Source: Candidatus Cloacimonadota bacterium
GTDB taxonomy: Bacteria > Cloacimonadota > Cloacimonadia > Cloacimonadales > TCS61
Direction: 5' to 3'
NCBI GenBank assembly: GCA_030596265.1
Contig: JAUVKM010000069.1
Span: 1-8,810 of the forward strand
Length of the DNA stretch: 8,810 nt
Below, in pieces: positions 1 through 8,365 of this stretch. The position numbers were made by a program, and so were the translations under genes. A model generated the notes under the pieces. It did not search any database. It saw only the letters and a list, made by a program, of their open reading frames with translations, and had not been told where the DNA came from. Position 1 is the first letter of the stretch, and each line of letters starts with the position of its first letter.

Positions 1-38
1 TAACAGAAAGATAATTTAAAGGAGTAACCATGAAAAGA
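1..38 (+). repeat. 38-bp leader direct repeat, copy 1
   Basis: Bases 1-38 are identical to 1945-1982. The repeat contains an AAAGGAG ribosome binding site, the ATG and the first codons (MKR) of the lipoprotein gene. After base 38 the copies differ at two positions, then share nine more bases (ATTAATATT) before diverging. Since the window starts exactly at base 1 of the match, the repeat may extend further left. It could be a duplicated expression leader, a recombination product or an assembly join. Confidence 0.9.
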
Positions 39-4971: not shown

Positions 4972-5078
4972 ATTTATCATTCTCTGCAATACCTTTACCC
5001 ATTGGAATAATTTAGCAAATTAAGTAAGTTCTTGACACTTCATTGTTTCTATATTCGCCTTGTTTCAAAGATTTCCGA

Positions 5079-5166
5079 AATCTATTTTTCTACTGTTCTT
5101 CTAAGAAGATAGGTCGATAGGGTTTGGTTGGAAACGACCCTGCCTCCCGCGTTTGGAAAGGAGATT
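5079..5166 (+). ncRNA. Moco/Tuco riboswitch (MOCO RNA motif), compact form
   Basis: The 3' core GCCTCCCGCGTTTGGAAAGG (5142-5161) is nearly the same as the core of the E. coli moaA Moco riboswitch as I recall it (GCCTCCCGTATCTGGAAAGG). It is preceded by a hairpin, TAGGGT (5118-5123) with ACCCTG (5137-5142), in the place of the last hairpin of that motif. Upstream, CTA...TCTTC-TAA-GAAGA-TAG (5090-5112) forms a second stem, and AATCT (5079-5083) can pair with AGATT (5162-5166) as a closing P1. The element is shorter than the E. coli one and seems to lack the extra P3-type arm; such forms were proposed to sense the tungsten cofactor (Tuco). Its position just before a tungsten-enzyme gene supports this. 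The 5' boundary and helices are estimates by eye. Confidence 0.8.
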
Positions 5167-5181
5167 ATCCAAAAAAACAAA

Positions 5182-5187
5182 GGGAGG
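5182..5187 (+). promoter_or_regulatory. Shine-Dalgarno of the aldehyde oxidoreductase gene
   Basis: GGGAGG lies 4 bases before the ATG at 5192, inside the run AGGGAGGAG. It decides the start: an in-frame TTG at 5153 lies within the riboswitch core and has no ribosome binding site. The site is about 20 bases past the riboswitch core, not inside it. Confidence 0.75.
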
Positions 5188-5191
5188 AGAA

Positions 5192-6982
5192 ATGAAAGCT
5201 TATGCAGGAAAAATCTTAAGAGTTAACCTTGCAACTGGAGAGATCAAGAAAGAAAATCTTGATCCGGAAATAGCAGCCAAATTTATCGGCGGAAGGGGAT
5301 TAGGAACATACATCCTCTCAAAAGAGATCGATCCAAAAATTGATGCACTTTCTAAAGAAAACAAAATCATTTTTGTAACAGGTCCCTTAACGGCTGCGCC
5401 TGTGCCTACAGGTGGTAGATTTATGGTCGTTACTAAATCTCCTTTGAGCGGAACTGTAGCCTGCTCTAACTCAGGTGGATATTGGGGAGCAGAGTTAAAG
5501 ATGGCTGGATATGATGCCATAATTGTAGAAGAAAAATCAGAAAAACCTGTTTTTTTAACAATTGAAGACGACAAAGTAGAGCTAAAAGACGCTTCCTATC
5601 TTTGGGGTAAACTTGTAGGTGAAACAACCGATATTTTAGAGAGCGAAAGTGCTCCAAAATCTAAAGTGCTGACCATTGGTCCTGCTGGTGAAAAATTATC
5701 CGAAATTGCGTCCGTTATGAATGACCGCTATAGAGCAGCAGGCAGAAGTGGCGTGGGAGCTGTAATGGGCAGTAAAAACTTCAAAGCCATTGTAGTTAAG
5801 GGTAGCGGAAAAGTGGAAATTGCCAACGAAGAAGAATTAAAAATTGTAAACAAGAAGTGGATGCAGAAATTGAAAGATGATGGTGTCACGGGTACTGGAT
5901 TACCTGCCTACGGTACAGCTGTTCTTGTTAATATAATCAACGAAAGCGGTGTTTTCCCAGTCAGAAATTTCCAAGAGGCACATTTGGACGACGTTGAACA
6001 AATATCGGGTGAGACTCTCTCTGATAACTATTTAGTCAGAAAAGATCCTTGTTATAGATGCCCTATCGCCTGCGGTAGATATTGTAAAGCCGATGATATC
6101 GAAGGTGGCGGACCTGAATATGAAACTGTATGGGCTTATAGTGCCAACTGCGGAGTAAATGACCTGAAAGCCGTAATCAAAGCAAATTATTGGTGTAACG
6201 AATACGGATTAGATACAATTTCTGCCGGATGTACAATTGCGGCTGCAATGGAATTGTATCAAAAAGGTATTATTAAAGACGAAGAACTCGAAGGCAATCC
6301 ATTAGAATTTGGAAATACAGATTCAATTGTTGATTGGACAATTAAAATGGGCAAAAGAGAAGGTCTTGGAAAAAAATTATCTATGGGGTCATATAGATTT
6401 TGCGACAGTTATGGTCATCCTGAAATTTCTATGAGTGTAAAAAAACTGGAAATTCCTGCCTATGATCCTCGTGGAATTCAGGGTATGGGATTACAATATG
6501 CAACTTCCAACAGAGGTGGTTGCCATGTGCGCGGCTATTTGATCGCTCCGGAAATATTAGCTCACCCAGAAGCTATAGATAGATTCTCCCTTGATGGCAA
6601 GGCAACCTGGGCAAAGGTCTTCCAGGATCTAACTGCAACAATTGACTCTCTCGGGTTATGCCTATTCACATCATTTGCTTGTGGTGCTGATGATTATGCT
6701 GAACTTATTAATGCCGCTTCAGGGACAAATCATGATGCCAACAGTATTTTGGAAGCTGGTGATAGAATTTGGAATATGGAAAAACTATTTAACTTAGAAT
6801 CCGGCATCCTACCTGGTGAGGATAAACTTCCTAAAAGATTACTTGAAGAAGAAATTCCAAGCGGACCATCTAAGGGCTGGAAACACAAATTAAATGAACT
6901 ACTTCCTCTCTATTATGAAGAAAGAGGTTGGAGTAAAGAAGGTATCCCAACTAAAGAAAAGCTTAAAGAGTTAGGCTTATAA
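5192..6982 (+). CDS. aor: Tungsten-type aldehyde:ferredoxin oxidoreductase
   Basis: This 596-aa cytoplasmic enzyme should oxidise aldehydes to carboxylic acids, or run in reverse, with ferredoxin, using a bis-pterin tungsten cofactor and one [4Fe-4S] cluster. The length matches the family (about 600). The N-terminal domain (1-205) shows FIGGRGLGTYIL, TGPLTAAPVPTGGRF, SNSGGYWGAELKMAGYD and DRYRAAGRSGVGAVMGSKNFKAI, the usual cofactor-binding AOR-N pattern. Cluster ligands are Cys287, Cys290, Cys294 (C-x2-C-x3-C) and Cys490 in DSLGLC (485-490). The active-site pair is likely Glu311 (GPEYE) or the adjacent Glu309, and His445 (SNRGGCH). YDPRG-x-QGMGLQYATSNRGG is the second cofactor-binding stretch. 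The start is set by AGGGAGGAG. A Moco/Tuco riboswitch precedes it and a terminator follows, before its maturation genes. The aldehyde substrate is unknown; amino-acid-derived aldehydes are plausible beside a permease. Confidence 0.95.
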   Translation: MKAYAGKILRVNLATGEIKKENLDPEIAAKFIGGRGLGTYILSKEIDPKIDALSKENKIIFVTGPLTAAPVPTGGRFMVVTKSPLSGTVACSNSGGYWGAELKMAGYDAIIVEEKSEKPVFLTIEDDKVELKDASYLWGKLVGETTDILESESAPKSKVLTIGPAGEKLSEIASVMNDRYRAAGRSGVGAVMGSKNFKAIVVKGSGKVEIANEEELKIVNKKWMQKLKDDGVTGTGLPAYGTAVLVNIINESGVFPVRNFQEAHLDDVEQISGETLSDNYLVRKDPCYRCPIACGRYCKADDIEGGGPEYETVWAYSANCGVNDLKAVIKANYWCNEYGLDTISAGCTIAAAMELYQKGIIKDEELEGNPLEFGNTDSIVDWTIKMGKREGLGKKLSMGSYRFCDSYGHPEISMSVKKLEIPAYDPRGIQGMGLQYATSNRGGCHVRGYLIAPEILAHPEAIDRFSLDGKATWAKVFQDLTATIDSLGLCLFTSFACGADDYAELINAASGTNHDANSILEAGDRIWNMEKLFNLESGILPGEDKLPKRLLEEEIPSGPSKGWKHKLNELLPLYYEERGWSKEGIPTKEKLKELGL

Positions 6983-8140: not shown

Positions 8141-8365
8141 ATGAGTATTTGCGTTAAATTGTTTGCAACTCTGCGGGAAAACAGAGACAAACAACTGGAT
8201 ATAAATTATAAAAAAGGGATAACTCCCAAAGATATTATTCTAAAATTAAATATAGAATTAAATGAAGTTGCTATTCTCTTGATAAATGGAATATACTCTC
8301 CGCCGGAGCAAGAATTGAAAGATGGTGATATTATCTCGTTGTTTCCTCCCGTGGGCGGTGGATAA
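8141..8365 (+). CDS. moaD: MoaD/ThiS-like sulfur carrier protein
   Basis: This 74-aa beta-grasp protein matches the length of MoaD/ThiS (about 65-90). It starts with VKLFATLRE, typical of MoaD strand 1, continues with LNEVAILLINGIY and ends LKDGDIISLFPPVGGG. E. coli MoaD ends similarly with FPPVAGG, so the terminal diglycine is directly exposed and can be adenylated and thiocarboxylated. It would supply sulfur to form the dithiolene of molybdopterin/tungstopterin. AAGGAAAG lies just upstream of the ATG. The stop TAA overlaps the ATG of the E1-like gene by one base (TAATG), so carrier and activating enzyme are translationally coupled. The symbol is by family; it may be a dedicated AOR paralogue. 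Confidence 0.9.
   Translation: MSICVKLFATLRENRDKQLDINYKKGITPKDIILKLNIELNEVAILLINGIYSPPEQELKDGDIISLFPPVGGG

What the first reader, a model, noticed from the sequence alone, without database searches (positions are those of the whole stretch)
5079..5166. Moco/Tuco-type riboswitch in front of an aldehyde oxidoreductase gene
The 20-base core at 5142-5161 is close to the hallmark 3' core of the Moco RNA motif, and flanking stems can form. Known examples mostly sit upstream of cofactor synthesis or Mo-enzyme genes. Here it controls a tungsten-type AOR with its maturation genes, and it lacks the extra arm, matching the form proposed to sense tungsten cofactor. It is a candidate for a natural Tuco-specific aptamer.
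Basis: partly seen in the sequence, partly recalled or inferred. Interest (0 to 1): 0.75.

Follow-up and report, generated by a model that had tools for sequence, protein, structure and literature searches.

The report
Tungsten-cofactor riboswitch before aldehyde oxidoreductase
An RNA sensor of a known family, in the form thought to sense the tungsten cofactor, sits in front of a tungsten enzyme gene and looks built to switch that gene on rather than off.

Summary
The RNA is real. P3 is absent (linker CGAUA, 5115-5119), as in the form proposed in 2008 to sense tungsten cofactor (Tuco). An AOR gene starts at 5192, followed by radical-SAM, MoaD-like and MoeB-like genes. Such RNAs before AOR genes are not rare: 43 of 324 leaders analysed, a sample rich in AOR genomes. 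What I add is the platform: without ligand the Shine-Dalgarno 5182-5187 pairs with the aptamer core 5143-5148 (unpaired 0.002-0.006); with the aptamer forced it is 0.56-0.59 unpaired. That predicts gene-ON by Tuco. AOR-type leaders were called ON in 27 of 32, uptake and cofactor-gene leaders in 11 of 118; the same rule on further matches gave 8 of 11 and 4 of 37. Whether the aptamer tells W from Mo cannot be decided from sequence. Host: probably Cloacimonadota.

The parts
5061..5179 (+). Moco/Tuco-type riboswitch aptamer (RF01055), P3-less
   Evidence: cmscan 56.0 bits, E 1.3e-11; own P3-less model R2 75.6 bits
5071..5076 (+). P1 5' strand (pairs with 5160-5165)
   Evidence: Rfam alignment
5160..5165 (+). 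P1 3' strand
5080..5114 (+). P2 hairpin; its tetraloop-receptor region departs from the consensus
   Evidence: compared with the consensus by eye
5115..5119 (+). P2-P4 linker CGAUA; no P3 arm
5120..5145 (+). P4 with GAAA tetraloop 5131-5134
5146..5156 (+). P5 (5146-5147 with 5155-5156)
5143..5148 (+). core segment CCUCCC, predicted to bury the Shine-Dalgarno when no ligand is bound
   Evidence: MFE pairs 5143-5148 with 5182-5187 at 25, 37 and 55 C
5169..5173 (+). CCAAA element 5' of the Shine-Dalgarno, complementary to the core's UUUGG
   Evidence: within 22 nt of the SD in 7 of 8 AOR leaders with the RNA directly before AOR, 3 of 51 without it (motif chosen after looking)
5182..5187 (+). Shine-Dalgarno GGGAGG of the AOR gene
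   Evidence: sequence; the start at 5192 fits the N-terminus of the 88% homologue P0121
5192..6982 (+). aldehyde:ferredoxin oxidoreductase (AOR)
   Evidence: PF02730, PF01314; PDB 9g7j 831 bits, 1aor 737 bits
7039..8109 (+). radical SAM/SPASM protein close to the tungsten-cofactor oxidoreductase maturase family
   Evidence: TIGR04317 370.8 bits, just under its cut-off of 380
8141..8365 (+). MoaD/ThiS-like sulfur carrier
   Evidence: PF02597
8365..8808 (+). MoeB/ThiF-like adenylyltransferase, runs off the window
   Evidence: PF00899

Best explanation
A P3-less Moco/Tuco-class riboswitch that controls translation of the AOR gene and activates it. Shown by computation: the class, the architecture, and that the Shine-Dalgarno is predicted either to pair with the aptamer core or, with the aptamer formed, to be largely free. 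Inferred: during transcription the aptamer (P1, P2, P4, P5) folds first; if tungsten cofactor binds, the core stays locked and the Shine-Dalgarno is free, so AOR is made when its cofactor exists; if not, the emerging Shine-Dalgarno captures CCUCCC of the core and AOR is not translated. Inferred from the AOR context and the missing P3: the ligand is Tuco rather than Moco. AOR would then be opposite in sign to tungstate-uptake and cofactor-synthesis genes, whose leaders mostly look like OFF switches.
For: Class. P3-less and AOR operon. Window platform: MFE pairs 5182-5187 with 5143-5148 at 25, 37 and 55 C; P(SD unpaired) 0.006 free, 0.59 with P1+P4+P5 forced; 0.002 and 0.56 for a longer leader with P2 forced too. 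MFE of transcripts ending at 5165-5177 has 6 of 6 P1 and 9 of 9 P4 pairs; P1 is lost from 5180, and from 5189 all six SD bases pair into the core. No terminator was found before the gene and the SD is outside P1. Comparative: AOR-type leaders 27 ON, 1 OFF, 4 unclear of 32; uptake/cofactor genes 11 ON, 93 OFF, 14 unclear of 118 (Fisher 3e-18, relatedness not corrected). Further matches, same rule: AOR-type 8 ON, 3 OFF of 11; uptake/cofactor 4 ON, 31 OFF, 2 unclear of 37 (p 2.3e-4). Among leaders without a terminator and with the SD outside P1, SD-core pairing is at least 0.4 in 14 of 18 AOR-type and 3 of 10 uptake/cofactor leaders. Two different ON platforms occur before AOR genes (SD pairing; a terminator that uses P1's 3' strand). 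On the AOR tree RNA directly before AOR needs 3 changes, the window's clade apart from the others.
Against: No ligand or expression data. RNAfold, which ignores the tertiary contact, puts the ligand-free form 10 kcal/mol below the aptamer at 37 C, so the switch must work during transcription or the gap is overestimated. SD/core complementarity is partly built in (the core holds CCUCCC, SDs hold GGAGG): shuffling the window's 15-nt linker leaves SD pairing at 0.99 on average, so the linker adds no evidence here. With the aptamer forced the SD is only 56-59% free. The ON/OFF rule was tightened once, after a first version called 17 of 53 TupA-type leaders ON. By the unchanged rule 3 of 11 AOR-type leaders in the second set are OFF. 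The aptamer's P4 and receptor are imperfect, so function is not guaranteed.
Confidence: 0.7

Rival explanations
1. Same class, but an OFF switch: the ligand-bound aptamer represses AOR, as proposed for E. coli moaA.
For: The platform described for E. coli has the ribosome binding site within P1; 157 of 236 leaders in my survey were called OFF.
Against: The window's SD is outside P1, no terminator was found, and forcing the aptamer frees the SD; repressing an enzyme by its own cofactor makes little sense (inference).
Confidence: 0.12
2. The aptamer senses Moco, or Moco and Tuco alike; lack of P3 is inherited baggage, not specificity.
For: Specificity of the P3-less form was not measured in the 2008 paper; deleting P3 in E. 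coli abolished regulation and did not switch specificity. Two P3-containing RNAs (L082, L130) stand before TupA-type genes (L082's protein matches the TupA model, under its cut-off).
Against: Published correspondence in 17 of 19 organisms. Here 43 of 43 AOR-type RNAs have linkers of 3 to 5 nt, but long linkers were rare altogether (4 of 254, 7 of 88), so this adds little.
Confidence: 0.4
3. A decaying, non-switching relic of the motif.
For: Two mismatches in P4, degenerate receptor; 68 of 98 matches score above its 56.0 bits.
Against: The core, the P1 and the P5 pairs are kept, the SD is complementary to the core, the score is 20 bits over the cut-off.
Confidence: 0.1
4. Chance match.
For: None found.
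Against: E 1.3e-11, right strand and place before a cofactor-dependent gene.
Confidence: 0.01

Closest known systems
Moco RNA motif / molybdenum cofactor riboswitch (Rfam RF01055), E. coli moaA leader
   Same: Core, P1, P2, P4, P5, GAAA tetraloop
   Different: No P3; SD outside P1 and complementary to the core; predicted gene-ON. The 2008 paper proposes repression through P1 for E. coli; a 2025 paper infers transcription termination there (passage)
P3-less 'Tuco' variant of Regulski et al. 2008 (PMC2408646; abstract, sections 5, 6, 11, 12 and found passages read; the body of Table 1 and the supplement not seen)
   Same: Architecture; association with Tuco genes
   Different: Probable host phylum is not in the abstract's list; no activating platform in what I read
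Translational ON riboswitches of other classes, e.g. the adenine add riboswitch (recalled)
   Same: Ligand-free form hides the SD, ligand frees it
   Different: Other aptamer and ligand; here the conserved aptamer core itself pairs with the SD

Membership tests
RF01055 Moco motif | Covariance-model score over the curated cut-off | tested here: met
   56.0 against 36 bits, full model
RF01055 Moco motif | P1, P2, P4, P5 around the conserved core | tested here: met
   P4 has two mismatches; covariation in relatives
RF01055 Moco motif | GNRA tetraloop on P4 and receptor in P2 | tested here: inconclusive
   GAAA present; receptor region differs from the consensus
RF01055 Moco motif | Upstream of Moco/Tuco synthesis, transport or enzyme genes | tested here: met
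   AOR start codon 12 nt after the match, maturation-type genes next
RF01055 Moco motif | Gene control in response to the cofactor | not testable with these tools
   needs cells or ligand
P3-less Tuco variant | P3 absent | tested here: met
   5-nt linker
P3-less Tuco variant | Host carries Tuco genes | tested here: inconclusive
   AOR operon with a near-TIGR04317 maturase in the window; genome not held
P3-less Tuco variant | Responds to W cofactor and not to Mo cofactor | not testable with these tools
   not shown in the sections of the 2008 paper that I read either

The most novel reading that the evidence does not exclude
P3-less RNAs are true tungsten-cofactor sensors that run a two-sign regulon: they shut off tungstate uptake and cofactor synthesis and switch on the tungsten enzymes (AOR), here by pairing the Shine-Dalgarno with the conserved ligand-binding core, an arrangement that joined AOR genes more than once.
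Probability: 0.4. Interest if true: 0.75.

Novelty: new variant of a known kind. Interest (0 to 1): 0.52.

Why it matters
In 2008 direct binding could not be shown because Moco and its intermediates are unstable, and I found no later binding report in my searches. An AOR leader predicted to switch on gives a positive read-out (signal rises with W cofactor), and leaders of uptake and cofactor genes, mostly of opposite predicted sign, give a control. It would make testable in vivo whether an RNA tells tungsten from molybdenum in a near-identical cofactor.

Tried and rejected
Host genome: none held. First alignment A1 had several RNAs on the wrong strand; redone as A2. Model R1 had P2 one column out for most sequences; replaced by R2. 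A first SD-accessibility measure used the longest SD match and gave mixed results; for AOR leaders the change was mostly positive but small. First ON/OFF rule: AOR 16 ON, 1 unclear of 17; Fe-S+AOR 12 ON, 3 unclear of 15; TupA-type 17 ON, 34 OFF, 2 unclear of 53; rSAM 3 ON, 13 OFF, 8 unclear of 24; MoeA 1 ON, 15 OFF, 3 unclear of 19. It took the lowest-energy long hairpin, which swallowed P1 in leaders that have their own terminator; replaced, and that rule used unchanged. The one OFF call (first copy in L321) and two of the three (L407, L416) look ON to my eye but are counted as called. Idea that the window's linker is fitted to hide the SD: not supported by shuffling. Idea that aptamer and AOR arrived together from the other RNA-bearing AOR leaders: not favoured. 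Papers: PMC2408646, abstract, sections 5, 6, 11, 12 and found passages; found passages only of PMC12121620, PMC11477304, PMC3766115, PMC5317091, PMC6239172; listings. 'No activating platform in print' rests on these alone.

Full report
Observation. cmscan of the whole window against Rfam 15 gives one match over its cut-off: RF01055, 5061-5179 (+), 56.0 bits, E 1.3e-11, all 135 model positions. The P3 positions are deleted; the linker between P2 and P4 is CGAUA (5115-5119). The alignment gives P1 5071-5076/5160-5165, P2 within 5080-5114, P4 5120-5130/5135-5145 with loop GAAA and two mismatches, P5 5146-5147/5155-5156.

Surroundings. AOR 5192-6982 has both AFOR domains and matches the PDB AORs 9g7j and 1aor with 831 and 737 bits. 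The next gene is a radical SAM/SPASM protein whose best NCBIfam match is the tungsten-cofactor oxidoreductase maturase (370.8 bits, cut-off 380), then MoaD/ThiS-like and MoeB/ThiF-like genes. No genome is held. Of the five organism-named relatives at 87% or more of the permease on the other strand, three are Cloacimonadota, one Bacteroidetes, one Armatimonadetes, so the host is probably of Cloacimonadota. The AOR has proteins at 88, 83 and 74% and then many at 72% and less, the named ones of these being Clostridia-type (best 120 listed). With the tree below this suggests horizontal transfer.

Survey. 80 AOR loci were fetched (the best 80 of 143). RF01055 was searched in their genomes (over the cut-off in 34 of 39 and 23 of 39) and in samples drawn round some of them: the class of L029's genome, which also holds L019 and L028 (13 of 99), the class of L078, titled Gammaproteobacteria (3 of 143), the phylum of L052, titled Deltaproteobacteria (33 of 148), the phylum of L016, titled Bacteroidetes (10 of 198). 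A P3-less model (R2) gave 16 matches in the window and the 80 AOR loci: directly before AOR in the window and 7 loci (L004, L009, L014, L018, L035, L069, L073), before an Fe-S gene + AOR in 6 (L050, L051, L054-L057); most AOR orthologues thus lack it. Over all loci 254 distinct RNAs were obtained, 4 with a linker over 8 nt. A model made from P3-less RNAs may misplace a P3: at least seven long rows are poorly aligned in P2 or P4. First genes were named through clusters and Pfam matches of cluster representatives; 'TupA-type' was checked on four proteins, all matching the TupA model at 213-252 bits, under its cut-off of 400.

Platform. In the window the ligand-free fold buries GGGAGG (5182-5187) against CCUCCC (5143-5148), bases that form P4 and P5 in the aptamer. 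The chance that the SD is unpaired is 0.006, and 0.59 with the aptamer forced (0.002 and 0.56 for a longer leader). Minimum-energy folds of growing transcripts are aptamer-like up to 5177, lose P1 from 5180, and are fully sequestered from 5189. No terminator was found between. In 7 of 8 leaders with the RNA directly before AOR a CCAAA, complementary to the core's UUUGG, stands within 22 nt of the SD, against 3 of 51 AOR leaders without RNA (p 2.7e-6; motif chosen after looking; 17 loci had no recognised SD, 3 partial loci were left out, and two of the loci without RNA, L016 and L039, have under 150 nt upstream). Duplex energies between the window's core and the SD region have medians of -16.9 and -12.2 kcal/mol (p 0.003). 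Against this, shuffling the window's own linker does not lower its SD pairing (mean 0.99).

Sign of control. With one rule for 236 leaders, AOR-type leaders are 27 ON, 1 OFF, 4 unclear of 32; TupA-type 7 ON, 43 OFF, 3 unclear of 53; MoeA 0 ON, 16 OFF, 3 unclear of 19; rSAM (7 of 24 followed by MoaC) 2 ON, 15 OFF, 7 unclear of 24; ABC permease 0 ON, 9 OFF, 1 unclear of 10. Uptake and cofactor genes pooled, binding proteins and ABC ATPases included: 11 ON, 93 OFF, 14 unclear of 118. The cost of forcing the aptamer is 9.8 against 3.8 kcal/mol (medians). The rule had been tightened once, so it was left unchanged and applied to new matches from a larger sample of the class of G059 (391 genomes, some seen before, new matches only) and the phylum of L026, titled Spirochaetes (149 genomes): AOR-type 8 ON, 3 OFF of 11; uptake/cofactor 4 ON, 31 OFF, 2 unclear of 37. 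These are predictions from sequence; related leaders, and two tandem copies before one gene in L321, are not independent.

History. On a quick AOR tree (68 rows: the window, 62 of the 80 loci, 5 proteins) the state 'RNA directly before AOR' needs three changes, which the starred branches force; the window's clade stands apart from the other bearers. Three gains is the shortest history. By pairwise score the window's RNA is nearest to RNAs before moeA (L162, L163, L171). Both fit repeated joining of this aptamer to AOR genes; 120 nt cannot prove it.

Known and new. The class, its P3-less form and the Tuco proposal are from Regulski et al. 2008 (PMC2408646). What I read there describes a repressing platform with the ribosome binding site in P1, and terminators; its passages on activation concern FNR, ModE and, in the references, other riboswitches. 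Searches on this class with AOR, tungsten or Tuco listed no paper that I could recognise as describing an activating platform; subscription papers and supplements are not in that library. So: a member of a known class, in a P3-less form already proposed, in a probable new host phylum, with an activating platform that I count as a new variant.

Noticed in passing
L211, L206, L214, L223, L254, L248, L283, L301 and others: P3-less RNAs also precede aldehyde dehydrogenases of PF00171 (the two tested, in L211 and L254, are L-glutamate gamma-semialdehyde dehydrogenases by TIGR01236), a family that needs no Mo or W (recalled). Calls: 7 OFF, 2 ON, 5 unclear of 14. Perhaps a tungsten-free stand-in made when Tuco is short.
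   Followed up: partly
L176, L302, L188, L300, L311: P3-less RNAs before NiFe-hydrogenase small-subunit-like genes, which need neither Mo nor W (recalled).
   Followed up: no
L172, L190, L303, L307, L310: P3-less RNAs before Porin_O_P genes, in L310 followed by a TupA-type gene: candidate outer-membrane tungstate porin.
   Followed up: no
L172, L206, L307, L321: Two RNAs of this class in a row on one strand.
   Followed up: no
window 1-37 and 1945-1981: The same 37 bases (leader and first codons) stand before two different small genes; seen by eye.
   Followed up: no
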